From positions 144,086-208,085 of the forward strand of contig NZ_CP026605.1 in assembly GCF_003063625.1 (NCBI RefSeq): 64,000 nt of DNA, in the 5' to 3' direction. Source of the stretch: Saccharobesus litoralis (GTDB lineage Bacteria; Pseudomonadota; Gammaproteobacteria; Enterobacterales; Alteromonadaceae). Both the position numbers and the translations under genes were made by a program. The stretch's first letter is position 1; each line of letters opens with the position of its first letter. Shown one piece after another: positions 1 through 54,122 of the stretch. The notes beneath the pieces are model-generated. The model did no database searches, was not told the origin of the DNA, and was given only the letters and a program-made list of their open reading frames with translations.

Positions 1-700
1 AATAACCGTGCCACTGGGTAACGTCTTCACCAGTTTGGCTTGCTAAAAGATCGATATTTTTCGCAAAGTTCCAACGATCAGGATCAGTTACATCATCAGG
101 GCGGAACGTGGTGATAACCGTTTTTTCATAACCCGTTCCTTGCAGCTTAGCATGGTGCTGCAAGTCGTCGGTTGCACCCTCAGTTGTGGCTAGCAACTCA
201 ATATTGAAGCGTTCTAATAAAGCACGAGGACGGAACGCATCTGTCACTAATTTTGCATTAATCGTGTCGTAGTAAAAGTCAGCCGTTTGTGGGCTAAACT
301 CAACTTCAAAGCCAAACACTTCGCTAAAAACAAAGTCCATCCAAATGCGTGAAGGTGTGCCATGGAATAAGTAGTAATGGTCAGCGAAAATGTGCCAAAT
401 TTTACGGTAATCAGTTTCTACTTCGCCACCATCAACACGTGGAATGCCAAGGCTTTCTAGCGCAACGCCTTGGCTATAAAGCATTCTAAAAACATAATGG
501 TCAGGAATTATCAATAGCTCTGTGGCGTTCTGAAAACATTCATTACCCGCGAACCAACTTGGATCAGTGTGACCATGCGGACTAATAATGGGTAAATTGG
601 CAACCTCAGCATATAATTCACGACTAATGGCTAACTCGCTAGGATCAGCCTTAAATAGCCGGTCATTATCTAGCACTAATGGTTTGTGATTTACGTCCAC
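1..700 (-). CDS. uxaC: Uronate isomerase, N-terminal part (cut by window edge)
   Basis: Interconverts D-galacturonate/D-tagaturonate and D-glucuronate/D-fructuronate in the cytoplasm, the first intracellular step of hexuronate use. The visible 233 codons carry the metal-binding SPHGHTDPSWF segment near residue 40 and IPDHYVFRMLYSQGV, typical of the glucuronate isomerase family. The ATG at 705-703 is out of frame and soon meets a stop. The open frame starts best at GTG 700-698, about nine bases after a GAGG ribosome site. The C-terminal half lies beyond position 1. A pectin-type operator lies upstream at 847. Family assignment is secure; the start is a judgement. Confidence 0.88.
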   Translation of the reverse strand, partial: MDVNHKPLVLDNDRLFKADPSELAISRELYAEVANLPIISPHGHTDPSWFAGNECFQNATELLIIPDHYVFRMLYSQGVALESLGIPRVDGGEVETDYRKIWHIFADHYYLFHGTPSRIWMDFVFSEVFGFEVEFSPQTADFYYDTINAKLVTDAFRPRALLERFNIELLATTEGATDDLQHHAKLQGTGYEKTVITTFRPDDVTDPDRWNFAKNIDLLASQTGEDVTQWHGY

Positions 701-2450: not shown

Positions 2451-3920
2451 TTAAACGTTGTAGGTAGTTGACGCGGTATCACCACCGCGTCCGGTCCAAT
2501 TCGTATGGAAAAACTCACCGCGTGGTTTATCGACTCTTTCATAGGTATGCGCACCAAAGTAGTCACGCTGCGCCTGCAATAGGTTGGCCGGTAAACGTTC
2601 GGTACGATAACCATCGAAATAGGTTAGAGCTGAACTTAAACAAGGTACAGGTACCCCATTCGCCACTGCGGTGCTAATGACATTACGCCAACTACTTTGG
2701 GCAGACGAAACCGTGTCCATAAAATACGGATCGAGTAATAAATTGGCTAAATCTGGCTGTTGGTCAAAGGCTTCTTTTATCTTGCCTAAGAACGCAGAAC
2801 GAATAATACAACCACCGCGCCACATTAATGCAATCGCGCCATAATTTAGGCTCCATCCAAACTCTTTCGCGGCTTCTTTAAATAAAACATAGCCTTGGGC
2901 ATAAGAAACAATTTTAGATGCCAACAGCGCTTTGCGAATATCTTCAATAAACGCGGCTTTATCGCCTGTAAATTGTTTCGCAGGACCTTGGATCAGTTTT
3001 GCCGCGGTAACACGTTCAGCTTTTTGTGCCGATATACAACGCGCAAATACCGCTTCACCAATTAAGGTTAACGGCACGCCTAAATCCAATGCAGTTACCC
3101 CTGTCCACTTACCTGTACCTTTTTGCCCAGCAGTATCTAAAATATCTTCAACTAGCGGGCTACCATCAGCTTGTTTATAAGCAAAAATATCGCGCGTGAT
3201 CTCAACTAAATAGCTATCAAGCTCAGTTTGGTTCCAATCCGCAAACACTTGATGCAATTCATCAGCCGATAAGCCCAGTACTTCTTTCATTAATTGGTAA
3301 GCTTCACAAATCAGCTGCATGTCGCCATATTCGATACCATTGTGGACCATTTTCACAAAATGACCGGCACCGGCATCACCAACCCAATCACAACAGGGCA
3401 CGACTAACTCGCCTTGCTCATTAGCCACTTTGGCCGAAATACTTTGAAAAATATCTTTAACATGTGGCCAAGCAGCAATGGCTCCGCCGGGCATAATTGA
3501 AGGCCCCTTCAAAGCGCCCTCTTCGCCGCCTGAAACCCCAGCACCAATATAATGTAAACCTTTGCTAGCTAAATACTCGGTACGACGATTTGAGTCTGGA
3601 TAATGGGTGTTACCACCATCAATAATAATGTCGCCCGCGTCTAAATGCGGGATAAGCAACTCAATAAAATCATCAACCGGTTGCCCAGCTTTCACCATCA
3701 ACATCACTTTACGAGGTGTCGCCAATGACGCAACTAGCTCTTGAATATCTTTTGCTCCGCGTATCGTTTTACCTGCCGCACGACCCGATAAAAACTTTTC
3801 GACCTTTTCATAACTACGGTTATACGCAGTCACCGTAAATCCTTTACTGGCCATATTGAGTACTAGGTTTTCACCCATTACGGCTAGGCCTACAAGGCCA
3901 ATATCTGACTTATCTTTCAT
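2451..3920 (-). CDS. gnd: 6-phosphogluconate dehydrogenase, decarboxylating
   Basis: Oxidises 6-phosphogluconate to ribulose-5-phosphate and CO2 with NADP+ in the pentose phosphate pathway. The 489 residues match the family length. The N-terminus has the Rossmann motif GLAVMGENL (residues 11-19). The substrate region GAGVSGGEEGA (about 128-138) and catalytic KMVHNGIEYGDM (about 190-201) are intact. It follows uxaE on the same strand but a strong terminator separates them, and no pectin operator lies directly before it. Its position next to a gluconokinase-epimerase fusion suggests it handles carbon arriving as gluconate from uronates. ATG start with GGAG upstream. Confidence 0.95.
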   Translation of the reverse strand: MKDKSDIGLVGLAVMGENLVLNMASKGFTVTAYNRSYEKVEKFLSGRAAGKTIRGAKDIQELVASLATPRKVMLMVKAGQPVDDFIELLIPHLDAGDIIIDGGNTHYPDSNRRTEYLASKGLHYIGAGVSGGEEGALKGPSIMPGGAIAAWPHVKDIFQSISAKVANEQGELVVPCCDWVGDAGAGHFVKMVHNGIEYGDMQLICEAYQLMKEVLGLSADELHQVFADWNQTELDSYLVEITRDIFAYKQADGSPLVEDILDTAGQKGTGKWTGVTALDLGVPLTLIGEAVFARCISAQKAERVTAAKLIQGPAKQFTGDKAAFIEDIRKALLASKIVSYAQGYVLFKEAAKEFGWSLNYGAIALMWRGGCIIRSAFLGKIKEAFDQQPDLANLLLDPYFMDTVSSAQSSWRNVISTAVANGVPVPCLSSALTYFDGYRTERLPANLLQAQRDYFGAHTYERVDKPRGEFFHTNWTGRGGDTASTTYNV

Positions 3921-3955
3921 TTATATTTTGCTCCGCACTTATATTTTGCTCGCAC
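3921..3955. repeat. Short direct duplication before gnd
   Basis: Two near-identical copies (18 and 17 bp) of TTATATTTTGCTC(C)GCAC directly upstream of the gnd ATG. The copy next to the ATG carries its ribosome site. Confidence 0.7.
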
Positions 3956-4044
3956 TCAGGGCGTGTTGAATTGATCAATGGTGGTCACTGGTATTGTATT
4001 AGGGGGAGATCAGTGACCCTGTCATATAAGTAAATTAACTTTGT

Positions 4045-4096
4045 TTTCAAAAAACGAGGTGCAGCCAGGGAGACCACACGAATTACGCTGCACCTC
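4045..4096 (-). terminator. Terminator of uxaE
   Basis: GAGGTGCAGC (4056-4065) and GCTGCACCTC (4087-4096) form a perfect 10-bp stem. On the minus strand it is followed by GTTTTTTG. It lies 42 bp after the uxaE stop and separates that operon from gnd. Confidence 0.85.
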
Positions 4097-4138
4097 ACAA
4101 AATAGTGTCTTCTCGCTCAGACTAAAGATTTTGCACAA

Positions 4139-5386
4139 TTAACCAAAAATTCGGGTTAAGTGACGATCTAAAATATTTTCTGTTACGTTCTTATCGATAA
4201 TCGCCTTGTTCTCTTTTAACGCATTTAAGTATTTATCACCCATTTGCGCAGCCACTTTGTAACCAACGTGTAGCAACTGGCGTAAATTTGGATTGTACTC
4301 AGGGTGCGCTAAATCATGACGTAAAGCATTCGCGTATTGCTGCCCTGTCCAGTTTTGAACGTCAGCTACTGCTGGCAATCCAGCAGGATCAATATCAATG
4401 ACTGTTGCGTAAGGAGCACATAACTCATCAAACTTATCCATTGATTTAGCGTAAACCGCTTTGGCAATTTCTAAGCCTTCGCCACCCGCTTCAGCTAAGC
4501 CGATCAGCTCTTCTAACCAAGTTGTGCCCGCGGTTTTTAAGTGAATACCGGCATTGTGTTTCTTTAAACAACGACCAATCGCAGGATAAATAGAGAATTT
4601 ATCTGAGCCTGAGTGCACGCTTAATTTTAGTGTTTCAGGCAAACCAAATTCTTTAATTGCAAAGTCGATAACCGCTAAATCTTGGTCAAACTCTTTTTCA
4701 AATTGCACAACATCACCCACATAATCGACCCCTTTATTAAAGCGACCCGTGAATTTAGGCGCGATAGTTTGTGCTGGAATACCCTCAGCCGCAATAGCAC
4801 TTAAAATGAAGAATAACTGTAATGGCGTTTGCGGATCTTCACATTCGTCCATTGATACTTCGGTGACAAATTCTCCGACTTTTTCATCAGCAATTTTGCG
4901 ATAAATTTGTCCAGCTAATTTAACCGCGCCTAAAAACTCTTTAGCAATTGACTCGACTGTTTCTGCTGTCACGCTAAACGCTTCATCAATACCTGGAATC
5001 GTTAATTCACCTAAATATTTTTCTTGGGCAGCAACAAAAGCATCGATATCTGCTTGTGGCGCAGCTAAACCAATTTGTTCAGCCACATCCAAGGTAAAAA
5101 AGTCACTGCAATCAATAAAGCTATCCACAGTCGTCAATTGAATGTGATCAGCATCAACATAATAGGGTAATTGCCAGCCTTTCACCTTTACCGCTGCATC
5201 CGCTTCGTCGCGTAAACTTTGCGGCACAGTACCTATAATTTGATGCTCACGATTCGATTTATTCCAAACCGGAAATACTTCTAAGCCAAATTTTTCTTTG
5301 GCATCTATCATAGCTTGTAATTGAGCCTCTGCTTGATGGCCAAATCGATCACCAACACCCATTGTGTACTTTGCAATTTTTTTCAT
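4139..5386 (-). CDS. uxaE: Tagaturonate epimerase (UxaE family)
   Basis: Converts D-tagaturonate to D-fructuronate, letting galacturonate enter the fructuronate/mannonate branch without tagaturonate reductase and altronate dehydratase. The 415-residue protein begins IAKYTMGVGDRFGHQ and carries WNKSNREHQIIGT, YYVDADHIQLTTVDSF and SVHSGSDKFSIYPAIG, blocks I recognise from the UxaE family. It has its own operator 39 bp upstream and a strong terminator after it. With uxaC and uxuB in the same regulon it completes galacturonate to mannonate. The family is recalled rather than searched; the alternative is another sugar-acid isomerase of the same fold. Confidence 0.82.
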   Translation of the reverse strand: MKKIAKYTMGVGDRFGHQAEAQLQAMIDAKEKFGLEVFPVWNKSNREHQIIGTVPQSLRDEADAAVKVKGWQLPYYVDADHIQLTTVDSFIDCSDFFTLDVAEQIGLAAPQADIDAFVAAQEKYLGELTIPGIDEAFSVTAETVESIAKEFLGAVKLAGQIYRKIADEKVGEFVTEVSMDECEDPQTPLQLFFILSAIAAEGIPAQTIAPKFTGRFNKGVDYVGDVVQFEKEFDQDLAVIDFAIKEFGLPETLKLSVHSGSDKFSIYPAIGRCLKKHNAGIHLKTAGTTWLEELIGLAEAGGEGLEIAKAVYAKSMDKFDELCAPYATVIDIDPAGLPAVADVQNWTGQQYANALRHDLAHPEYNPNLRQLLHVGYKVAAQMGDKYLNALKENKAIIDKNVTENILDRHLTRIFG

Positions 5387-5418
5387 TTTCGCCTCTCGTT
5401 GTTATGACACAACCATTT

Positions 5419-5432
5419 AGCCACCGGTGGCA
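5419..5432. promoter_or_regulatory. Pectin-regulon operator (uxaE)
   Basis: AGCCACCGGTGGCA, centre 39 bp before the uxaE start. It differs from the consensus only at the first base. Confidence 0.85.
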
Positions 5433-5452
5433 TTTCCGGTAAACTCAGGTTA

Positions 5453-6136
5453 TCACTGTAAAATCCAAACCAATCCTAATGTCGCTGCACATAAACCCAG
5501 TGCTTGACTAAACCACTGATGAGCCTTCTGGCTATACTTGTAAAGCATACGATTTAGCTGGCCAAAGCCTAAACCAAATACTGTCATGCCAAGTAAACAA
5601 CCTAGTGAAAACATCAGCATATAAATAATGGCGCCTACAACTTGGCCTTGCATCGCTACTGGGATCAATGCCAGTGCTGGCGCGCTACCTGCCATACCAT
5701 GCAACCCACCAACCAGTATAGGTTTGTGATCATGACGGCTTGTTTGTATTTGTTTTTCTAACCTAGATTGTTGTGTAACCCAGTGTCGATGAAATCTTTG
5801 ACCATGCTGATGGCGTTTTAAATGCAAATTGCCTTTATTAATTTGCCAAATCAAACCTAAGCCTAAAACGATAAGCACGCCGCCAACCATAAGCTCAGCC
5901 ATTTGGGTGATAGCGGCGGGTAGATGCAGATTAAATACAGTCAAACCAATCGCTAAACCCAGCAAGATCAACCCATGACCACATCCCCACTGCGCGGCGA
6001 ACTTGATCATGGTTGCGACTTTGCGCTTAGACTGACTCAGCGTAGATACCGCCATCACATGATCAGCATCAAATGCATGGAGCAAGCCCATTAAGGCTCC
6101 CGCGGTTAAAATGGCAAAAGATTCAAGCATTGACAT
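5453..6136 (-). CDS. Nickel permease, NiCoT/UreH-like
   Basis: A 227-residue membrane protein with about six hydrophobic segments. LLHAFDADHVMAVS near residues 18-31 matches the HA-x-DADH metal-transport signature of nickel/cobalt permeases. A second conserved stretch, GGLHGMAGSAPALAL, sits in the second half, and a His-rich loop (KRHQHGQRFHRH) lies between. It starts 14 bp after larB ends, in one operon with larB, larE and the gluconokinase-LarA fusion. This points to supplying nickel for the pincer cofactor. Cobalt or other metal transport cannot be excluded from sequence. Confidence 0.8.
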   Translation of the reverse strand: MSMLESFAILTAGALMGLLHAFDADHVMAVSTLSQSKRKVATMIKFAAQWGCGHGLILLGLAIGLTVFNLHLPAAITQMAELMVGGVLIVLGLGLIWQINKGNLHLKRHQHGQRFHRHWVTQQSRLEKQIQTSRHDHKPILVGGLHGMAGSAPALALIPVAMQGQVVGAIIYMLMFSLGCLLGMTVFGLGFGQLNRMLYKYSQKAHQWFSQALGLCAATLGLVWILQ

Positions 6137-6150
6137 GATTTATCTCACAC

Positions 6151-6825
6151 TTAGTTTTCAAACATGTTTAAGGTTTTAATAGCCGCTACAGCAGCACCAA
6201 ACCCGTTACCAATGTTAACGGTCACAATTCCTGGTGCACAAGATGCAAGTGCGCTTTCTAAAGCGGCTTTACCACCTGCAGATACGCCATAACCCACTGG
6301 GCTTGGTACCGCAATAATCGGGGCATGGATCAAACCTGCTAGCACGCTAAATAACGCCCCTTCCATTCCGGCTACTGCGATAATAATTTTATGCTTTTGG
6401 ATCTCGGGTAACTTTTCAGTTAAACGCCATAATCCTGCTACACCCACATCGCAAATTAAAGGAGCAGCGTAGCCATTAAATTGCAAAGTTCGCGCGGCTT
6501 CACGTGCTACCGAAATATCGGATGTCCCCGCAGCCACAATACAAACGCCAGGTTTTAAATTGTTGTCTTGTTCATTTCTACTTACAGCGTCCGTCAGCAA
6601 AATTGCCGTATTTGAGCTTGGATCAAAATCTAATTTTGCTTGGTGTGCATGACTCAAGGTTGCAAATTGCTGGGCACTTAAGCGTGTCAAAAATATACAG
6701 TTATTAACGCTTATGTTATGGGCAATAATCGCATCAAGATCCGCCGTCGCTTTACCTGCGCAAAACACGGCTTCAGCAATACCGGTACGCTCTGCTCGCT
6801 GTGAATCCCATTCAAACGGCTTCAC
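6151..6825 (-). CDS. larB: Nickel-pincer cofactor biosynthesis carboxylase/hydrolase LarB
   Basis: LarB carboxylates nicotinic acid adenine dinucleotide and hydrolyses its phosphoanhydride, the first step of nickel-pincer nucleotide synthesis. The C-terminal half shows the PurE-like AIR-carboxylase fold: AGTSDISVAREAARTL, DVGVAGLWRL, VAGMEGALFSVLAGL and PSPVGYGVSAGGKAAL. The frame is open further upstream to 6894, deep inside larE. GTG 6825-6823, however, has GAGG seven bases before it and gives the family N-terminus KPFEWDSQRAERTG-AEAVFCAGK. This start overlaps the larE stop by 14 bp, implying translational coupling. Confidence 0.9.
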   Translation of the reverse strand: MKPFEWDSQRAERTGIAEAVFCAGKATADLDAIIAHNISVNNCIFLTRLSAQQFATLSHAHQAKLDFDPSSNTAILLTDAVSRNEQDNNLKPGVCIVAAGTSDISVAREAARTLQFNGYAAPLICDVGVAGLWRLTEKLPEIQKHKIIIAVAGMEGALFSVLAGLIHAPIIAVPSPVGYGVSAGGKAALESALASCAPGIVTVNIGNGFGAAVAAIKTLNMFEN

Positions 6826-7624
6826 GATAAGCCTCTTTTCCAACAAAAGCTGAGCCACGTTGATACAAGCGAATACCACTAAATAAGTTACCACTGCGTT
6901 GGCACAAGGCTTTAGTGACCGCTTGAATATCGGCCATAATTGCCCCTTCGGGTAACGGTGCCATTTCTAAAATAACGCCTTGGTAAGTCATTCGGCAACG
7001 CACATCATGACGGCTTTCAAGAATGGCGTTAACCGCAGACTCTACTTTATCAATAAACTTCAAATCAGCAGGCAGTATACCAATACCCGTTTCCACTCGA
7101 CTGGCTAAACAAGGCTGACTCGGTAACGTTTGTAAATCAAACAAGCCCAAGTGTTTAGCGATGGCGTATATATCCTGCTTGCTAATGCCCACATCAACAT
7201 AAGGATGAACCACTTTTTGTTGTTCAGCAGCCTGTAAACCGGGACGAAAGTCGCTGAGATCATCGGTATTGGTACCCGACATAACAACGCCTGAATTAGC
7301 AACAGACAAACGCTTATACAAATTAGATTTACAGTAATAGCAACGATTAATTGGGTTTTTTAAGTAGTTATTATCCGCAAATTCCCCCGCATCAACCAAC
7401 TTTAGGTTCCACTCGTAACGTCCGGTATAATCAAAAATTCGCTTCATTGCTTGTTGCGGTACCGCGGGTGAATGCGCATGACAAGCAGTCGTACTTTTAG
7501 GGTAATACAGATGCGCAATAAAGCTTAACACCATACTGTCTATTCCCCCGCTAACCGCTATGGTCATTTTAGGAAACGTGCCTAAATGCGCGACTAACCG
7601 CTCTATTTTATCACTTGTATTCAT
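6812..7624 (-). CDS. larE: Nickel-pincer cofactor sulfur insertase LarE
   Basis: LarE adds sulfur to the pyridinium-3,5-biscarboxylate intermediate of nickel-pincer nucleotide synthesis. The PP-loop motif AVSGGIDS (residues 23-30) activates the carboxylate with ATP. Three cysteines stand at C95 and C98 (NRCYYCK) and C172 (PCLASR). This is the pattern of the three-cysteine type, which binds a [4Fe-4S] cluster and takes external sulfide, rather than the single-cysteine sacrificial Lactobacillus type. The 270-residue length fits the family. It lies 49 bp after the fusion gene and overlaps larB. No larC is visible in the window. Confidence 0.92.
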   Translation of the reverse strand: MNTSDKIERLVAHLGTFPKMTIAVSGGIDSMVLSFIAHLYYPKSTTACHAHSPAVPQQAMKRIFDYTGRYEWNLKLVDAGEFADNNYLKNPINRCYYCKSNLYKRLSVANSGVVMSGTNTDDLSDFRPGLQAAEQQKVVHPYVDVGISKQDIYAIAKHLGLFDLQTLPSQPCLASRVETGIGILPADLKFIDKVESAVNAILESRHDVRCRMTYQGVILEMAPLPEGAIMADIQAVTKALCQRSGNLFSGIRLYQRGSAFVGKEAYREAV

Positions 7625-7673
7625 AACGTTACTCTCACCACAAACAACCCAATCAACCTAACGACAAACCGTT

Positions 7674-9443
7674 TTATTCATTTTCAAATCGCGCTTTGGT
7701 CGACCATAAACCCAGCGCAGGATTACTGACATAGAATATTTCTTCACCGTCTGGCAGAGTATTCCAACCGTCTTTTAAATTTTCTATCGGGTAGCGCTTT
7801 GTCATTTCATCGTAATGGCAATACTGGTAATCAACACTTTCAATTTCTTGCTGACTAACGCCATCGCCTGGACAATAAGTCACATTAAACCGTTTATCCG
7901 CCGTGCCATGAATTAAATGTGCGGCCGCCGACAAATTCGTCGCCAGTTCAGGGTTGGCTTTTACTGCGGCTAGTGTTTCATCTGTGGTCTTATAACCGTA
8001 TTTACGAATGAGCCTGTCGATCTCTAAATCTTCTCCAAAGCGATGTAATGCTGGCGCCAAGATAATTAACTCGCCGGCATCAGCCATGGCCATACGCGTA
8101 CGGTAAATCGCTTTGTTACCTAACCAAGTTGTTTTGAATTCTGATGGTTCTAAATAAACAATCGCTTTATTAATCGGCTTATCTAACAAATTAAGATTGA
8201 GCTGCTGACTGAGCTTAGCTGCCGCTTCGTAAGTATCTTGGTTTGCACCACAAAATACGCCTTGTAATGCAAGTTTGTCATTTTTGTTGCCCAATACGGT
8301 TAAAATAAACTCAATTGGCAAGTGACGTAAAAATTCATCATAACCTTCGTTTAACGCTTTTCTAACCGGCGTATCGACGCGCCCCATGATCCTTTCCATG
8401 CCATAAACCGCACCTAAAAAATGAGATTTGTGAATGGTATCGGCTCCGCCTGTGCCAACTAATATATTTTTGGTGTAATTCGCCATACCAATGACTTCGT
8501 GAGGTACCACTTGGCCAACCGACACTATTAGATCCCAGTTTCCGTCTAATAATAATTTATTAGCTGCCACATCCATGCTGTAGTCGAGCTTGCCTTCTGA
8601 CAATTGCAGCATGCGCTCGCTACTGATCTCCCCCACTTTTTGCACATCTTGGCGCCACAAATGCGGTAAAAAACGCTCTTTGGGAATATCAGTGCCAAAC
8701 ATGGCGTCTATCTCTTGCTCGGCCATTGGCTCGTGAGTGCCTAAGGCTGGCAAAAAATAGATGTCAGCTTGATCTTTTAATTTTTCGTATAAATAAGCAG
8801 AAATAAAACCCGCTTTTGAGTAAAAACGCGTAATGTCGGGCGGTAAAATTAAAATACGCTTAGCGTTAGCCGCTTTTTGTTGAATAAATTGATCCAAAAT
8901 AGCAACTAAGGCTTGATCATTAATTGTCTGTTGTGTGTCAACAACATGAATGGGATAAGTCATTTTCATGCTCTCTAAAATCGATTGAACAATCACCTCT
9001 GGTGATTGGCTAATATCAGCAACAATGGCATTATTTGGCTCTTGCAATGCCGCAAACTGGCTATTAAGTAACTCAGTTGGCATAAAATGATTTTTACGTT
9101 TTGCCATACGACTCGCAATAAGTGCCTGACTGCCTTTCAAATACACAAATGTCACTTGCTTGGTTAAGGTCGACGCTAAAACATCACGATAACTTTGCTT
9201 TAATGCAGAACAGGCTAAAACTGCACCGCCTTGTGCATTCCACAACACCATTTTGTCTGCTAAGCGTTTCAACCATGGCCAGCGGTCTTCATCTTGCAGT
9301 GCTATACCTTGGCTCATTTTGTCTATATTGGCTTGTGGATGAAAATCATCACCATCATAAAAGTTAACATTGAGCGCCTGCGCTAATCGATTACCGATTG
9401 ACGACTTACCACAACCACTTACACCCATCACAATATAAATCAC
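7674..9443 (-). CDS. Gluconokinase - LarA-type nickel-dependent epimerase fusion
   Basis: Two enzymes in one 589-residue chain. Residues 1-160 are a GntK-type gluconokinase: Walker A GVSGCGKSS (7-15), DGDDFHPQANIDKMSQG and DEDRWPWL. Residues about 165-589 are a LarA-like (DUF2088) domain. DITR (203-206), GTHEP (H237), H315, K325 and H341 align with Lactobacillus LarA H108, H174, K184 and H200. The 315/325/341 spacing equals 174/184/200, so the lysine that holds the pincer cofactor and the nickel-binding histidine are present. GTG start with AAGGGT upstream. It leads the operon with larE, larB and the nickel permease, under a perfect operator. The likely reaction is D-mannonate to D-gluconate by C2 epimerisation, then phosphorylation. 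Domains are firm; the substrate is inferred from the kinase partner and neighbours. Confidence 0.9.
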   Translation of the reverse strand: MIYIVMGVSGCGKSSIGNRLAQALNVNFYDGDDFHPQANIDKMSQGIALQDEDRWPWLKRLADKMVLWNAQGGAVLACSALKQSYRDVLASTLTKQVTFVYLKGSQALIASRMAKRKNHFMPTELLNSQFAALQEPNNAIVADISQSPEVIVQSILESMKMTYPIHVVDTQQTINDQALVAILDQFIQQKAANAKRILILPPDITRFYSKAGFISAYLYEKLKDQADIYFLPALGTHEPMAEQEIDAMFGTDIPKERFLPHLWRQDVQKVGEISSERMLQLSEGKLDYSMDVAANKLLLDGNWDLIVSVGQVVPHEVIGMANYTKNILVGTGGADTIHKSHFLGAVYGMERIMGRVDTPVRKALNEGYDEFLRHLPIEFILTVLGNKNDKLALQGVFCGANQDTYEAAAKLSQQLNLNLLDKPINKAIVYLEPSEFKTTWLGNKAIYRTRMAMADAGELIILAPALHRFGEDLEIDRLIRKYGYKTTDETLAAVKANPELATNLSAAAHLIHGTADKRFNVTYCPGDGVSQQEIESVDYQYCHYDEMTKRYPIENLKDGWNTLPDGEEIFYVSNPALGLWSTKARFENE

Positions 9444-9486: not shown

Positions 9487-9506
9487 TAAATGCCACCGGT
9501 GGCATT
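9487..9506. promoter_or_regulatory. Pectin-regulon operator (gluconokinase-larA operon / lacI)
   Basis: AAATGCCACCGGTGGCATTT is a perfect 20-bp palindrome and the longest copy in the window. It is centred 53 bp before the fusion gene and 192 bp before the divergent LacI-type gene, and could serve both. Confidence 0.9.
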
Positions 9507-9688: not shown

Positions 9689-10723
9689 ATGAGCGACGTA
9701 AAAGTCACAATTAATGACATTGCCCGAATGGCTGGCGTTTCAAAACGTACGGTTTCTCGTGTTATCAATAATTCGGATAAAGTCGGTAAAAAAACCAAAG
9801 AGTTAATCGATAAAATTATCGCAGAAACCGGTTTTGTACCAGACAAACAAGCCAGAGGCCTTGCTTCTAGCCGCTCATATTTATTAGGTTTGGTTTACGA
9901 TAACCCAGATGCTTTGTATATAGACGAAGTGCAGCGCGGGGTTTTAGACTATTGCAGTAATGGGGGGTATGAATTAGTTGTTCACCCTTGTAGTTATAAA
10001 AGTGAAGATTTGATCGCTAATGTCTTATCTTTTGTGAAACGCTCTAAATTAGATGGTATTGTCATATTACCGCCAGCCTCTGAAATAGACGAGTTAGGCG
10101 CAACCTTAGATGACAATAACATTCCTTACATTCGCATTGTGTCTGGCCGTTCCGAAAATGCCGAAAACTTTGTGGTGTCTAACGACGGTCAAGCCGTCTT
10201 TGAGTTAGTTGACTTCCTCATTACACTCAACCACGAAAAAATAGCCATGATCACAGGGCCAATGAATTATCGTTCATCTAAAGAACGTTTCAGTGGCTAT
10301 AAAGTGGCAACAGAAAAAGCCAAGTTAAATCTCCCACAAAACTATGTAGTTGAAGGTACTAACCAATATATTAGCGGCATAGAATGCGCGAATGTGCTAC
10401 TGGATTTGCCAGAGCGCCCTTCTGCTATCATCGCCAACAATGATGAAATGGCCGCCGGTGCATTGAAAGTTGCCGTAGCAAAAGGCATCAAAGTACCAGA
10501 AGAATTATCCATTTGTGGCTTCGATGATAACTTGTTAGCTTCACGTATTATGCCGCAACTAACAACAGCCCGCCGTCCCGTTAGGCAAATGGCCAAAGCC
10601 GCCGCTAAAAAGCTAATTGCCAAAATAGAGAATGGTAATCCAAGTGTGATAGTGGAAGAAGTCGTCGTCGCACCTAAAGTTGTGATCCGCGAATCGACCG
10701 CTGCGCTATCACCTAAAACGTAA
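9689..10723 (+). CDS. LacI-family transcriptional regulator, probable pectin regulator
   Basis: A 344-residue LacI/GalR repressor. The N-terminal HTH is VTINDIARMAGVSKRTVSRVIN (split here across residues 6-27), followed by the hinge-like GFVPDKQARGLASSRS. The periplasmic-binding-like effector domain spans about 62-335, with the usual GFDDNLLASRIMPQLTTARRP near the C-terminus. It is divergent from the gluconokinase-larA operon, with the 20-bp palindrome between them. Being the only LacI gene inside the pectin locus, it is the best candidate to bind TGCCACCGGTGGCA. The effector is probably a uronate intermediate. Regulator identity is inference from position. Confidence 0.85.
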   Translation: MSDVKVTINDIARMAGVSKRTVSRVINNSDKVGKKTKELIDKIIAETGFVPDKQARGLASSRSYLLGLVYDNPDALYIDEVQRGVLDYCSNGGYELVVHPCSYKSEDLIANVLSFVKRSKLDGIVILPPASEIDELGATLDDNNIPYIRIVSGRSENAENFVVSNDGQAVFELVDFLITLNHEKIAMITGPMNYRSSKERFSGYKVATEKAKLNLPQNYVVEGTNQYISGIECANVLLDLPERPSAIIANNDEMAAGALKVAVAKGIKVPEELSICGFDDNLLASRIMPQLTTARRPVRQMAKAAAKKLIAKIENGNPSVIVEEVVVAPKVVIRESTAALSPKT

Positions 10724-27431: not shown

Positions 27432-28667
27432 TTGAATTCAGCAAAACCATTTAGTATTTCGAAATGGACAGTTTATGAAGCCTGGTTACGTGTAAGAGCC
27501 AACGGTGGAGCGGCAGGAATTGATGAGCAATCGATGAGTGATTTTGAACAGGACTTGAAGAAGAACCTGTACAAGATATGGAATCGAATGTCATCGGGCA
27601 GCTATTTTCCACCGACGGTGAAGCGTGTCGAAATCCCTAAGGATAAGGGCGTTCGAGTACTAGGCATACCCACGGTATCAGACCGAGTTGCACAGATGGT
27701 CGTCAAGATGGAGTTGGAGCCTGAATTAGAATCGGTATTCGATAATGATTCTTATGGTTACAGACCTAATCGCAGTGCACATGATGCATTAGCGATAACG
27801 CGCCAGCGGTGTTGGCGATACGACTGGGTGATTGATTTAGATATCAAAGGCTTCTTTGATAACTTGGACTGGGTGTTATTGGGCAAAGCGTTACGCAAAC
27901 ATACCAATAACCCATGGGTATTACTCTATATCGAACGTTGGCTTAAAGCGCCAATGGAAACCTCGGATGGTCAGATAATAGAGCGAACGAAAGGAACACC
28001 ACAAGGAGGCGTGATAAGCCCATTGCTAGCCAATTTGTTTTTACACTACGCATTCGACAAATGGTTGCGAAGAGAACATCCACATGTTCAATTTGCACGC
28101 TATGCGGATGATGCAGTGGTTCACTGTCGTAGTGAGCAAGAAGCAAAGGCGTTAAAGCAAGCTATTGAGCAACGCATGTTAGATTGTTGTCTAGAATGTC
28201 ATCCAGAGAAAACTAAACTGGTTTACTGCTTTGATGAAGGTAGACAAGAAGCACATGAAGTCATTAGCTTTGATTTTCTTAGTTACTGTTTCAGGCCAAG
28301 GTTAGTAAGGAATCGGTGGGGTCGCATGTTTGTTGGCTTTACACCTGCTATTAGCCCTAAAGCGAAACAGAAAATTAGAGAGAAAGTTAAAGCGCTCAAG
28401 CTACATAAGCAAACGGGGTTAACGATACAAGAGTTGGCGTATAAGCTTAATCCGATGATAAGCGGGTGGATAAATTACTTCAGTCGGTTTTGGAAAACAG
28501 CATTAAGGCCACTTATGTCTTGGATAAACCTTAAATTGTTGAAATGGGCGAAGAAGAAATACAAACGGCTGAAATTCAGTTACCAAAGAGCAAGAAAATG
28601 GATGCAAAGGGTGTGTAATACACAACCGTATCTATTTTCTCATTGGCAATTTGGTTGCAGGCCGTAA
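27432..28667 (+). CDS. ltrA: Group II intron reverse transcriptase/maturase
   Basis: A 411-residue multifunctional intron protein that helps splicing and copies intron RNA into DNA. The RT core includes RPNRSAHDAL, DLDIKGFFDNLDW, GTPQGGVISPLLANL and the catalytic FARYADDAVV. The maturase X domain follows (LNPMISGWINYFSRF). The C-terminus ends FSHWQFGCRP without an HNH endonuclease. TTG 27432 is the start, chosen because AGGAGG lies five bases upstream while the nearby ATG 27429 is in a frame that stops after eight codons. The gene lies in intron domain IV. Confidence 0.93.
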   Translation: MNSAKPFSISKWTVYEAWLRVRANGGAAGIDEQSMSDFEQDLKKNLYKIWNRMSSGSYFPPTVKRVEIPKDKGVRVLGIPTVSDRVAQMVVKMELEPELESVFDNDSYGYRPNRSAHDALAITRQRCWRYDWVIDLDIKGFFDNLDWVLLGKALRKHTNNPWVLLYIERWLKAPMETSDGQIIERTKGTPQGGVISPLLANLFLHYAFDKWLRREHPHVQFARYADDAVVHCRSEQEAKALKQAIEQRMLDCCLECHPEKTKLVYCFDEGRQEAHEVISFDFLSYCFRPRLVRNRWGRMFVGFTPAISPKAKQKIREKVKALKLHKQTGLTIQELAYKLNPMISGWINYFSRFWKTALRPLMSWINLKLLKWAKKKYKRLKFSYQRARKWMQRVCNTQPYLFSHWQFGCRP

Positions 28668-28917: not shown

Positions 28918-30390
28918 TTAAATAAGGGCGCCTTGCGGGTAGTCTTGCGCGTCTAACAGCTTTTGATAAGCGCAAATAAAGGCTTGTTTAAAATCAGCAC
29001 TATTGATGAGTTGGCTATTAAATAAGCCGCTTAGCGAGACAAATTTTTGTACGTCTTTTATCGCATCTTGCTCAAACTGACTGACCACATCGGCTAATTT
29101 TTCGGCAAGCGGATCACTAAGCTCTTCGCTGTTAAGCACTTTTAACTCAATAAAACGCAACCAAGAAGCAACAACCATAGCCAATAATTTAACCGGTTTA
29201 CCTTTGGCTAAGTTTTCAGCAACGGGCTCTAACGAGCGCACCGGAATTTTAATCGAACCATCGCATGCAATTTGTTCTAACTGATGTTGAATTTTACTGT
29301 TTTCAAAGCGCTGAATGATCGCGCGCGAATAAGCGTGTAAATCAAGACCGGCTGGCGCTTCAATGCTAGGGATTATTTCTTCATCAACCAAACGTAATAA
29401 GAAGGCTTTAATTGTCGGGTCCGACACTGCTTGGTAAACCGTAGTAAAGCCTGCTACTCGACCAAAATAGGCCAAAGTAGAGTGTAAACCGTTTAATATA
29501 CGTAGTTTGGTATGCTCATAACCGGCTACGTCGTTACTAAATATTACGCCAACATCACGCCAATTGGGTTGCTCGCCAGTTAAGCAGTCTTCAATTACCC
29601 ATTGAGTAAAGGCTTCTCTTTGTACAGGGGCATTGTCTACTAATCCAGTTTTTTCGGTCACCAAATCTAACGTTTCAGGTTCGGTTTTTGGTGTAATGCT
29701 ATCAACCATGGTATTAGGGAAACAAACCGTTTGTTCAACCCACTCGCTTAACTCGGTTGATAAAAATCGGCAGTATTGCACAACCGCATTTTTTAACTTT
29801 TGGCCGTTCGCTGGCAAGTTATCACAGGCAATTACATTAAATGGTTTTATTCCAGCTTGAAAACGCAAATGCAAGCCTAAAGCAATAATGCCAATGGCCG
29901 ATTGCGGGTTTTCTGTATTCGCTAAGTCTTGTTCAATACTGGCATTTTTTAAATCTAAATTGCCATGGGCGTCTAAACAGTAACCTTTTTCGGTTACGGT
30001 TAATGATACTAATTTAGTCGCTTCGTCAGACAAACGCGCTAACACTTGGTCTAATTGTTCAGCCGCTACCAGAACTTCTTTTATGGCTCCAATCACTTGA
30101 AAGCTGTCTTGATTGTCAAGTTTAGCAACCGTATATAAGTTGTCTTGCGGAGCCATGGTATCGCGAAGATGGGTACTGCGCATAGACACACCGCAAATAC
30201 CCCAATCACCACCAAACTGATTCATCGCCTGCTCAGTATAGTACGCTTGGTGTGAGCGATGAAAAGCCCCCAACCCTAGGTGCACTATGCCAATTTTTGT
30301 GGCTGACCTGTCATACTTGGGCAAGGCAAGATCAGCGGCTAACGAAACATCGTTAGCTAATTTATTAATATTGAATTCATTTAGTTTCAT
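28918..30390 (-). CDS. uxuB: Fructuronate reductase (D-mannonate oxidoreductase)
   Basis: Reduces D-fructuronate to D-mannonate with NADH in the cytoplasm. A 490-residue member of the long-chain mannitol dehydrogenase family: N-terminal nucleotide site IVHLGLGAFHRSHQAYY (35-51), family block VTEKGY, and the catalytic-domain motif TKLRILNGLHSTLAYFG. Altronate oxidoreductase (UxaB) is a close relative. But with a tagaturonate epimerase rather than altronate enzymes in the locus, the fructuronate role fits better. A pectin operator lies 74 bp upstream. No mannonate dehydratase gene is in the window. Confidence 0.88.
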   Translation of the reverse strand: MKLNEFNINKLANDVSLAADLALPKYDRSATKIGIVHLGLGAFHRSHQAYYTEQAMNQFGGDWGICGVSMRSTHLRDTMAPQDNLYTVAKLDNQDSFQVIGAIKEVLVAAEQLDQVLARLSDEATKLVSLTVTEKGYCLDAHGNLDLKNASIEQDLANTENPQSAIGIIALGLHLRFQAGIKPFNVIACDNLPANGQKLKNAVVQYCRFLSTELSEWVEQTVCFPNTMVDSITPKTEPETLDLVTEKTGLVDNAPVQREAFTQWVIEDCLTGEQPNWRDVGVIFSNDVAGYEHTKLRILNGLHSTLAYFGRVAGFTTVYQAVSDPTIKAFLLRLVDEEIIPSIEAPAGLDLHAYSRAIIQRFENSKIQHQLEQIACDGSIKIPVRSLEPVAENLAKGKPVKLLAMVVASWLRFIELKVLNSEELSDPLAEKLADVVSQFEQDAIKDVQKFVSLSGLFNSQLINSADFKQAFICAYQKLLDAQDYPQGALI

Positions 30391-30457: not shown

Positions 30458-30471
30458 TGTCACCGGTGGCA
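30458..30471. promoter_or_regulatory. Pectin-regulon operator (uxuB)
   Basis: TGTCACCGGTGGCA, centre 74 bp before the uxuB start. One mismatch to consensus. Confidence 0.82.
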
Positions 30472-53189: not shown

Positions 53190-54122
53190 ATGACAACTCA
53201 AAATGCCGTTTTTCAGCGCTACATTAATAACGACAATGTTTGGTTAGCTAAAAGCACACCACAAGAAAACCTGTTAACGGATCATGGCATAACACCTTGC
53301 GTATTGGCATCAGAAGATGAAGTAGGCCAAGCCATGTTACAGGAGTTGTATGCCACTGCAGCTGAAAAAACCGGTGATATTAATATTGCTCTGTTAGGCG
53401 GGCGTGGCGGCCAAGCATTGCACAAATTGCTAGGCGAGCTTGCCAAAGGCTCAGAGCAAGATGACTTACTCGCGCGGTTAAATGTATTTACGCAAGACGC
53501 ATTGGCACCTATGGGTATGAATAATGGCTTAAGCTTTGTGCGCGATTTTGAACGCATTTTAGGTAGTGCTTTTTTTGACAAAATTAAAAGCTTTACACCG
53601 ATGCAAACTGATTTAGACGATTTAGAAAGTGGCTTAATCGACTATTTAAATAAGCTTGAAGCATTAGGCGGATTAGATATTTTCTTTATTGGCCATGGGC
53701 CTGAGGAAAATCAAGCCTCGCACTTGGCTTACATCAAGCCATTTTCGGGAGCACAAAGCCATCACGTCGCCGGATTAATCCCCATTTCCAGTAGTATTTT
53801 AGAGCACCATATTAGCAAGTTTAAAGCCGGAGGCAGTCAAATAAGCGCGAGCGATGAGGCTGAGTGTCGCAAAGCTCAATATATTTTAACTTTAGGTCCA
53901 GCGGCGATTTTACAAGCCAAAAAAGTGGTTCAGTCTGTGGTTGATGCTGACTCCGCCCCCGCTAAAGTCGCGACTTACGCCAATGTACTTAATAGTGAAA
54001 TAAGCTCCGACCTAGGTACTGACAAACAACAGGCATTAGCCCAGCTCAATGCAAACCCTGGCTTGTGGATCCGCTTACATGCCAACTGCAAATCATTTGT
54101 TTTACCTAACTTAAATGTTTAA
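53190..54122 (+). CDS. 6-phosphogluconolactonase / glucosamine-6-phosphate isomerase superfamily protein
   Basis: 310 residues of the NagB/RpiA/6PGL fold. It has a nucleotide-like loop IALLGGRGGQAL, a conserved FTQDAL where family members bind the substrate, and FIGHGPEENQASHLAYIKPF at the position of the NagB G-x-G-x-D/E-G-H loop, here changed to GHGPEENQ. It is divergent from PL10 with the operator between, so it is probably part of the pectin regulon. The altered loop argues against an ordinary lactonase or deaminase. The substrate may be a uronate-derived ketose or lactone. Exact function unknown. AGGTGA ribosome site. Confidence 0.7.
   Translation: MTTQNAVFQRYINNDNVWLAKSTPQENLLTDHGITPCVLASEDEVGQAMLQELYATAAEKTGDINIALLGGRGGQALHKLLGELAKGSEQDDLLARLNVFTQDALAPMGMNNGLSFVRDFERILGSAFFDKIKSFTPMQTDLDDLESGLIDYLNKLEALGGLDIFFIGHGPEENQASHLAYIKPFSGAQSHHVAGLIPISSSILEHHISKFKAGGSQISASDEAECRKAQYILTLGPAAILQAKKVVQSVVDADSAPAKVATYANVLNSEISSDLGTDKQQALAQLNANPGLWIRLHANCKSFVLPNLNV

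What the first reader, a model, noticed from the sequence alone, without database searches (positions are those of the whole stretch)
2451..9443. A nickel-dependent shunt from galacturonate to the pentose phosphate pathway
Seen: uxaC, uxaE, a gluconokinase-LarA fusion, larE, larB, a nickel permease and gnd in one 10-kb block, and uxuB elsewhere in the same operator set. Known: UxaC, UxaE and UxuB turn galacturonate into D-mannonate; D-mannonate and D-gluconate differ only at C2; LarA-type enzymes racemise or epimerise alpha-hydroxyacids at C2. Inferred: mannonate is epimerised to gluconate, phosphorylated to 6-phosphogluconate and decarboxylated by Gnd. This replaces the UxuA-KdgK-KdgA branch, whose genes are absent from the window. 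Reductant spent by UxuB would return as NADPH at Gnd.
Basis: partly seen in the sequence, partly recalled or inferred. Interest (0 to 1): 0.93.

Follow-up and report, generated by a model that had tools for sequence, protein, structure and literature searches.

The report
Fused mannonate-to-6-phosphogluconate nickel enzyme
A pectin-gene-rich 208-kb contig of a bacterium carries one gene that joins a gluconate-kinase domain to a nickel-cofactor epimerase domain, and the protein is predicted to turn mannonate, a breakdown product of pectin sugar, into 6-phosphogluconate and so likely feed the pentose phosphate pathway; the route resembles one proposed in Thermotoga, but the fused enzyme seems to be undescribed.

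Summary
Window 2451-9443 encodes gnd, uxaE, a nickel-permease-like protein, larB, larE and a 589-residue fusion of a GntK-type gluconokinase with a LarA "group 18" hexonate epimerase; uxaC runs off the left edge, uxuB lies at 28918-30390. A LacI-type operator precedes uxaC, uxaE, the fusion and uxuB; 21 of 23 genome-wide sites lie on this 208-kb contig.
The proposed mannonate-gluconate-6-phosphogluconate route is the best reading: the fusion keeps the GntE catalytic residues; gntK directly precedes gntE at 15 of 15 loci found in the family; the tree needs at least five changes between fused and unfused, one fusion being in reverse order; gnd lies near gntE in 48 of 80 loci.
Two corrections. 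The route is not new: it was proposed for Thermotoga maritima, and GntE activity has been shown. And it does not replace UxuA here: the genome has UxuA, a UxaA-like dehydratase, Edd and KDPG aldolases. The operon also lacks larC, whose only copy is on the large contig.
New: the fused two-domain enzyme. No activity was tested.

The parts
2..700 (-). uxaC, uronate isomerase, first 233 codons (gene continues left of the window; family match G000:C2:143376-144713)
   Evidence: PF02614, 267 bits
846..863 (.). operator-like palindrome, 146 bp upstream of uxaC and 75 bp upstream of the divergent ORF 938-1789
2451..3920 (-). gnd, NADP-dependent 6-phosphogluconate dehydrogenase; weak terminator-like site between it and uxaE and no operator of its own
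   Evidence: TIGR00873 765 bits
4139..5386 (-). uxaE, tagaturonate 3-epimerase
   Evidence: PF16257 194 bits
5417..5434 (.). operator-like palindrome 31 bp upstream of uxaE
5453..6136 (-). nickel-permease-like membrane protein with HAFDADH motif (motif meaning recalled)
   Evidence: DsbD_2 over cut-off, NicO below
6151..6894 (-). larB, nickel-pincer cofactor biosynthesis (overlaps larE)
   Evidence: NF033503 236 bits
6812..7624 (-). larE, sacrificial sulfur transferase for the nickel-pincer cofactor
   Evidence: TIGR00268 211 bits
7674..9443 (-). gntK::gntE fusion, 589 aa
   Evidence: model mean pLDDT 94.6; Foldseek
8973..9437 (-). GntK-type gluconokinase domain of the fusion (residues 3-157)
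   Evidence: TIGR01313 185 bits; 39-43% identity to E. coli gluconate kinase structures
7701..8933 (-). LarA group-18 domain of the fusion (residues 171-581), with D203, R206, H237, H315-E316-V317, K325, H341, W440, K444
   Evidence: NF052594 619 bits; residues against 39, 40
8961..8963 (-). in-frame ATG (residue 161) at the place where unfused gntE genes begin; possible internal start
   Evidence: C. maritimum entry P0012 begins at the matching ATG of a fused frame
9489..9506 (.). perfect operator-like palindrome AATGCCACCGGTGGCATT, 46 bp upstream of the fusion and 183 bp upstream of lacI
   Evidence: a site in the same place in 6 of 6 lacI-type loci, this one included
9689..10723 (+). LacI-family repressor, divergent from the fusion; likely the regulator of this operator set
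28918..30390 (-). uxuB-like fructuronate reductase (mannitol dehydrogenase family)
30458..30471 (.). operator-like palindrome core, 66-68 bp upstream of uxuB

Best explanation
The 589-residue protein at 7674-9443 is a fusion of a GntK-type gluconokinase domain and a LarA-type (group 18) epimerase domain that is predicted to work as a two-step enzyme: the LarA domain would invert C2 of D-mannonate with a nickel-pincer cofactor to give D-gluconate, and the kinase domain would phosphorylate it to 6-phosphogluconate. The gene shares an operator type with uxaC, uxaE and uxuB, which are predicted to make mannonate from galacturonate, and stands near gnd, which would decarboxylate 6-phosphogluconate and return NADPH. 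Shown by sequence: domains, catalytic residues, shared operators, gene order, recurrence of the fusion. Inferred: substrate, direction, order of the two steps, use of Gnd rather than Edd, and loading of the cofactor with LarC supplied from the large contig.
For: Domains. The residues that Desguin 2020 (PMC7583248, sections 7-8 read) discusses in T. maritima GntE2 align with the fusion: R41/R206, E155/E316, K164/K325, H180/H341, and by counting along the same alignment D38/D203, H154/H315, W283/W440, K287/K444; the loop pair E-V fits the group 18-20 signature. JBC 2024 (PMC11770544, passages) gives E, V, A, H as the usual GntE signature; an A508-H509 pair lies in the matching region (its register to LarA W358-T359 is my inference). 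The model's LarA part matches 4nar (GntE2) best and its kinase part matches gluconate kinases of Sinorhizobium and E. coli. gntK directly precedes gntE at 15 of 15 loci found in 11 of 196 family genomes. The tree needs at least five changes of fused state, and one fusion (P0062) has the domains swapped, its sister locus L078 having gntE-gntK as neighbours. In 80 loci of the genome collection (the best 80 of 578 found, 75 of them outside Pseudomonadota), Gnd lies within 8 kb of gntE in 48 and a mannonate-oxidoreductase-like SDR in 38 (L030's copy scores 375 against cut-off 281 with NF006132). All 11 gntE genomes of the family have UxaC, against 39 of 185 others (p = 1e-7, relatedness not corrected). 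Operators precede uxaC, uxaE, the fusion and uxuB.
Against: In the papers and passages read no enzyme is stated to be a group-18 member with measured activity; Desguin 2020 only hypothesises hexonate epimerisation for group 18. UxuA, a UxaA-like gene, Edd and three KDPG-aldolase-family matches exist elsewhere in the genome, so by gene content the shunt need not be the only route. larC is missing from the operon. gnd has no operator of its own and a weak terminator-like site lies between it and uxaE. 21 of 80 loci show no listed hexuronate, Gnd or GntK gene within 8 kb; only 9 of these 21 are stretches under 15 kb. 74 of 80 loci have no SKI-type GntK within 8 kb. An in-frame internal ATG could make a separate epimerase. 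The strain this genome resembles, Catenovulum sp. CCB-QB4, did not grow on free galacturonate (PMC7953866, passages); the authors suspect lack of uptake.
Confidence: 0.75

Rival explanations
1. Kinase first: the kinase domain phosphorylates D-mannonate, and the LarA domain then epimerises 6-phosphomannonate to 6-phosphogluconate. The product is the same but the intermediate differs.
For: Lactobacillus suebicus extracts do exactly this, with unidentified genes (PMC6978723, abstract and passages). A fusion would suit either order.
Against: The LarA domain keeps the residues of GntE2, which acts on free mannonate (PMC7583248). E. coli GntK is reported not to use mannonate (Cohen 1950, as cited in PMC6978723), and the kinase domain is 39-43% identical to E. 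coli gluconate kinase structures.
Confidence: 0.12
2. Same enzyme, other exit: 6-phosphogluconate goes mainly through Edd and Eda (Entner-Doudoroff), not Gnd, so the route ends in pyruvate and triose phosphate like the UxuA branch.
For: The genome has an edd (1032 bits) two genes from a KDPG aldolase, in a cluster whose other members look like zwf, pgl and glk by eye. gnd has no operator of its own.
Against: A gnd stands near both gntE copies of this genome and within 8 kb of gntE in 48 of 80 loci elsewhere.
Confidence: 0.3
3. Reverse direction: gluconate is epimerised to mannonate and fed into UxuA; the kinase is an overflow branch.
For: Epimerases are reversible; UxuA is in the genome, in the same cluster in L005 (the genome G040) and L006, and 1.1-2.2 kb upstream of gntE in 7 of 80 loci.
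Against: A fused gluconokinase would compete for the substrate; 9 of 11 gntE genomes of the family have no UxuA; the operator set covers genes that would make mannonate, not gluconate.
Confidence: 0.04
4. Other hexonate: group 18 acts on another pair of C2 epimers and the mannonate link is indirect.
For: Group 18 is untested in the passages read; GntE1 of group 19 has a very high KM for mannonate and may have another natural substrate (PMC7583248).
Against: A mannonate-oxidoreductase-like SDR near gntE in 38 of 80 loci, UxuA shortly upstream in 7, Gnd in 48, a fused gluconokinase, and the GntE-type E-V loop.
Confidence: 0.07
5. Two proteins from one frame: internal initiation at codon 161 makes a free epimerase, and the fusion is incidental read-through of neighbouring genes.
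For: The ATG is kept where unfused gntE genes start; a C. maritimum database entry begins at it. At three loci of relatives gntK and gntE are in one frame split by a single stop.
Against: The fused frame is open in two species (DNA seen) and in two metagenome proteins at 69-73% identity, and fused proteins occur in other clades.
Confidence: 0.12

Closest known systems
Thermotoga maritima pectin/galacturonate locus aldH-pelB-gnd-uxaRED-gntEK (Rodionova 2012, not held, seen as cited; PMC3750489, passages)
   Same: Same proposed route: UxaC, UxaE, fructuronate reductase, GntE, GntK, Gnd; gnd, uxaE, reductase, gntE and gntK are under one pectin regulator, and a kdgAK-uxuBA branch is kept in the genome.
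   Different: There gntE and gntK are separate genes in the order epimerase-kinase under the GntR-family UxaR, and uxaC is predicted to be under KdgR; here they are fused kinase-epimerase, with a LacI-type operator set that includes uxaC, and larB and larE in the same operon. The epimerase fits group 18; GntE2 is group 20.
D-gluconate 2-epimerases GntE1, GntE2 and LarAH15 (PMC7583248, PMC11770544)
   Same: LarA fold, nickel-pincer cofactor residues, E-V or E-S loop, W before the catalytic lysine.
   Different: About 21% identical to GntE2 in the structural match; no group-18 activity is stated in the passages read (the group of LarAH15 is not given there); no kinase domain is described there.
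Lactobacillus suebicus galacturonate-phosphoketolase route (PMC6978723)
   Same: Mannonate is turned into 6-phosphogluconate, bypassing UxuA.
   Different: Kinase acts before epimerase, genes unknown.
GntK/IdnK gluconokinase (E. coli 1knq and others)
   Same: 39-43% identity, same fold and motifs.
   Different: Fused to an epimerase.

Membership tests
Nickel-pincer-dependent D-gluconate 2-epimerase (GntE; LarAH groups 18-20) | Cofactor-binding and catalytic residues (LarA R75, K184, H200; D72, H108, H174, K298) | tested here: met
   D203, R206, H237, H315, K325, H341, K444 in the fusion, invariant in the alignment of 80 homologues (roles; H237 as the H108 equivalent by inference)
Nickel-pincer-dependent D-gluconate 2-epimerase (GntE; LarAH groups 18-20) | Substrate signature: E-V/S loop and W in helix 11 | tested here: met
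   H315-E316-V317 and W440 (signature); the A-H pair of helix 14 is likely A508-H509 but its register to LarA is inferred
Nickel-pincer-dependent D-gluconate 2-epimerase (GntE; LarAH groups 18-20) | Curated profile score | tested here: met
   NF052594 619 bits, cut-off 500; the family is named 'putative hexonate epimerase'
Nickel-pincer-dependent D-gluconate 2-epimerase (GntE; LarAH groups 18-20) | Cofactor-making LarB, LarE, LarC in the genome | tested here: met
   larB and larE in the operon; a single larC on the other contig, G000:C1:1841440-1842654
Nickel-pincer-dependent D-gluconate 2-epimerase (GntE; LarAH groups 18-20) | Interconversion of D-mannonate and D-gluconate | not testable with these tools
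   needs an enzyme assay
GntK/IdnK-type gluconokinase | Profile score and Walker A motif | tested here: met
   TIGR01313 185 bits, cut-off 114; GVSGCGKSS at residues 7-15 (motif recalled)
GntK/IdnK-type gluconokinase | ATP-dependent phosphorylation of gluconate | not testable with these tools
   needs an enzyme assay
Thermotoga-type gntE shunt | gnd, uxaE, fructuronate reductase, gntE and gntK under one regulator, with uxaC | tested here: inconclusive
   All six functions present; operators before uxaC, uxaE, fusion and uxuB; gnd follows uxaE without an operator of its own. The presumed regulator is LacI-type, not GntR-type.
Replacement of the UxuA branch | No UxuA in the genome | tested here: not met
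   UxuA at G000:C1:686532-687695, 477 bits

The most novel reading that the evidence does not exclude
The fusion is a single-protein mannonate-to-6-phosphogluconate synthase in which the intermediate is passed between domains, and the kinase acts first: the LarA domain would then be the first nickel-pincer enzyme that works on a phosphorylated sugar acid, and would name the missing genes of the Lactobacillus suebicus galacturonate route.
Probability: 0.1. Interest if true: 0.82.

Novelty: new variant of a known kind. Interest (0 to 1): 0.52.

Why it matters
It gives a concrete, easily assayed substrate prediction for LarA group 18, a nickel-enzyme group for which no measured activity was found in the papers read. 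Fusion of the same two domains in several clades, and in both orders, argues that epimerase and gluconokinase act in sequence. It points to a second entry of pectin sugar into central metabolism that would return NADPH and pentose phosphate and would make it depend on nickel. The two-contig layout (larB and larE on the pectin contig, larC only on the large contig) is testable by itself.

Tried and rejected
Considered and dropped: chance association (operator, adjacency and fusion evidence too strong); a fusion made by assembly error (same open frame in C. maritimum DNA, and metagenome proteins P0002 and P0003 at 69-73% identity); the plain replacement claim (UxuA, a UxaA-like gene, Edd and KDPG-aldolase matches found). 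Led nowhere: the plasmid collection gave 5 records with only a 44-base gnd match; UxuA absence was not significantly tied to gntE; UxuA in 50 group-18 genomes, 49 of them of other phyla, gave 22 over the cut-off, 1 below it and 27 without a match, completeness not told and several matches partial, so no conclusion (50 of the 80 loci given, mostly the longer ones); the UxuB-like family could not be split by a 13-row tree into fructuronate and tagaturonate reductases. Protein lengths undercount fusions, because the C. maritimum entry P0012 is a suffix of a fused frame: P0012 was dropped, and database rows that look unfused were left out of the count of five changes; with all rows labelled as they stand a faster tree gave seven. 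A first neighbourhood count had lost some genes by its overlap filter; one search repeats it without the filter and its numbers are used. No residue-level superposition on LarA was made. The name UxaA is inferred from context: the query itself scores only below the cut-off of the galactarate dehydratase model (299 against 731).
Full report
What is there. The finding's genes are where it says. On the minus strand, in order of transcription: the fusion (9443-7674), larE, larB, a nickel-permease-like protein, uxaE and gnd, with uxaC further left and cut by the window edge. A LacI-family gene is divergent at 9689. The 589-residue fusion scores 185 bits with the gluconokinase model TIGR01313 (residues 3-157) and 619 bits with NF052594, 'nickel-dependent putative hexonate epimerase' (residues 171-581), both over the curated cut-offs. 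The predicted structure is confident (mean pLDDT 94.6, pTM 0.83); its second part matches 4nar, the T. maritima GntE2 apoprotein, best among solved structures (21% identity), and its first part matches gluconate kinases of Sinorhizobium and E. coli.

The active site looks intact. Desguin 2020 (PMC7583248; sections 7 and 8 read, other passages) lists the residues of LarA and GntE2 that bind the cofactor, act in catalysis or touch the substrate. By the alignment they correspond to D203, R206, H315, K325, H341 and K444 in the fusion, with E316-V317 as the substrate loop and W440 in helix 11; H237 (in GTH) fits the remaining histidine. All are invariant in the 80-sequence alignment. JBC 2024 (PMC11770544, passages) gives E, V, A, H as the usual GntE signature; E316, V317 and likely A508-H509 fit, the last pair by inference.

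The regulon. A palindrome AATGCCACCGGTGGCATT lies between the fusion and lacI. With up to three mismatches it occurs 8 times in the window (0.03 expected) and at 23 places in the genome, 21 of them on the 208,085-base contig C2, which is 3.5% of the genome; the same pattern read backwards gives 4 (binomial p about 8e-29, an illustration rather than a model). Sites stand 146 bp before uxaC, 31 bp before uxaE, 46 bp before the fusion and 66-68 bp before uxuB, and before other genes of the window, among them a GH28 and a pectate lyase gene. Of 18 distinct loci compared (19 rows, L005 and L129 being one genome), six carry this lacI; a site lies between lacI and gntK in all six, and before uxaE in the five where uxaE is in view (the window's with one mismatch to the strict pattern). 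The 12 loci without this lacI have none. gnd has no site of its own and a weak terminator-like hairpin precedes it, so its place in the regulon rests on read-through from uxaE.

A second copy and a missing larC. The large contig C1 has a paralogous region, uxuB-kduD-kduI-TRAP-gntK-gntE-larC-larE-larB-permease, with gntR and gnd further on; there gntK and gntE are separate genes and gntE is 72-73% identical to the fusion's LarA part. The only larC match of the genome is in it. Of the family's loci, 2 of 2 fused ones lack larC in the operon and 12 of 13 unfused ones have it. The fused copy therefore likely depends on LarC made from the other contig.

Why the two activities belong together. In 196 genomes of the family, group-18 gntE was found in 11, at 15 loci, and gntK lies directly upstream at all 15; at two (this window and C. 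maritimum, G084) the frames are fused, at three more they share a frame with one stop between. That search scored a limited number of candidates per genome, so further copies may exist. In the genome collection the pair also occurs in five of five Pseudomonadota loci and, as gntE-gntK, in Edaphobacter (L078). On a tree of 157 LarA domains (quick method, SH-aLRT support) the fused proteins need at least five changes of state when only fused rows and rows checked on DNA are counted: the Catenovulum group, an Opitutus-like group of seven, two further metagenome groups (five and two rows), and P0062, in which the order of domains is reversed. Changes can be gains or losses, and outside Catenovulum the fused rows are database proteins whose DNA I did not see.

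Neighbours elsewhere. The 80 loci are the best of 578; 75 lie outside Pseudomonadota. Within 8 kb of gntE: Gnd in 48, a mannonate-oxidoreductase-like SDR in 38, a PfkB-type KDG-kinase-like protein in 32, UxaC in 23, UxaE in 18, UxuA in 9 (in 7 of them 1.1-2.2 kb upstream on the same strand), SKI-type GntK in 6. One such SDR, tested, is over the cut-off of NF006132 'D-mannonate oxidoreductase' (375 against 281). 21 of 80 show none of the listed hexuronate, Gnd or GntK genes, and only 9 of those are stretches under 15 kb. In the 74 loci without SKI-type GntK nearby it is open which kinase would act.

Does it replace UxuA? Not in this genome: UxuA, a UxaA-like gene, Edd and three KDPG-aldolase-family matches are on C1. 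KdgK was not searched for. In the family, 9 of 11 gntE genomes lack UxuA. Of 50 UxaC genomes, by UxuA, UxaA-like (full-length, 47% identity or more to the query; the name is inferred) and gntE: 21 have UxaA alone, 10 UxuA alone, 8 UxaA and gntE, 7 UxuA and UxaA, 1 all three, 1 UxuA and gntE, 1 gntE alone (G179), 1 none (G167). So gntE is one of three possible sinks; of the genomes seen only G179 would rely on it alone, and other mannonate dehydratases were not searched for. The contrast in UxuA between gntE and other UxaC genomes is not significant (p = 0.17), while gntE occurs only in UxaC genomes (11 of 11 against 39 of 185, p = 1e-7; relatedness not corrected).

Known work. Rodionova 2012 (not held; seen as cited) proposed mannonate to gluconate by GntE in T. 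maritima, whose locus aldH-pelB-gnd-uxaRED-gntEK is mostly 2- to 5-fold up on pectin (PMC3750489, passages). Desguin 2020 showed D-mannonate to D-gluconate for GntE1 and GntE2 and wrote that it probably lets mannonate enter the pentose phosphate pathway. L. suebicus makes 6-phosphogluconate from mannonate with the kinase first (PMC6978723, abstract and passages). Searches for a gluconokinase-LarA fusion found no paper on it: 'gluconokinase' with 'lactate racemase' and 'fusion' 0; 'mannonate epimerase' with 'gluconokinase' 1, the L. suebicus paper; three of GntE, GntK, mannonate, bifunctional 4, none on a fusion by its listing; 'nickel pincer nucleotide' with 'epimerase' and 'uronate' from 2021 0. 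The library is open-licence papers only, and supplements were not seen.

Which organism. Its two contigs, the neighbours uxuB-kduD-kduI, and three genes between uxaC and uxaE fit the accession order given for Catenovulum sp. CCB-QB4 and its plasmid CP026605 (PMC7953866, passages); this is an inference, and by eye the signal-peptide note for one pectate lyase did not clearly fit. That strain grew on pectin and not on free galacturonate; its authors wrote that the epimerase route might not function; the main text holds neither 'racemase' nor 'nickel'.

Judgement.

Noticed in passing
G000:C1:1833594-1849846 (L087): Second, unfused gntK-gntE region with larC, TRAP transporter, kduD, kduI, uxuB and gnd, with a GntR-family gene; two parallel hexuronate systems in one genome.
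   Followed up: yes
53190-54122 (+): 310-residue protein with an operator-like site 109 bp upstream; no Pfam match at 1e-5 and only weak glucosamine-6-phosphate deaminase-like scores.
   Followed up: partly
L030:9009-9896 and relatives: About 300-residue family without NCBIfam match at 1e-10, within 8 kb of gntE in 9 of 80 loci and directly upstream of it in L030; function open.
   Followed up: partly
L061:12437-13561 and relatives: PdxB-type 4-phosphoerythronate dehydrogenase (452 bits, cut-off 434) near gntE in 20 of 80 loci; the link to hexonate metabolism is unexplained.
   Followed up: partly
L079:2905-4014 and relatives: PfkB-type KDG-kinase-like protein (below the NCBIfam cut-offs) near gntE in 32 of 80 loci; it may be the gluconate or mannonate kinase where SKI-type GntK is missing.
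   Followed up: partly
G179: Genome with UxaC, UxuB-like and gntK-gntE in which neither UxuA nor a UxaA-like gene was found: a natural test case for the shunt as sole route.
   Followed up: partly
L135:6246-10949 and L136: In G017 and G113 a UxuB-like reductase (48-49% identical) sits with UxaC and a UxaA-like dehydratase, and no UxaE was seen in the 20-kb stretches, so members of this reductase family may reduce tagaturonate.
   Followed up: partly
27432-28667 (+) and L002:13211-14446 (+): Two reverse-transcriptase-like ORFs with the same first 80 residues on the same contig, probably copies of one mobile element such as a group II intron (family recalled, not searched).
   Followed up: no
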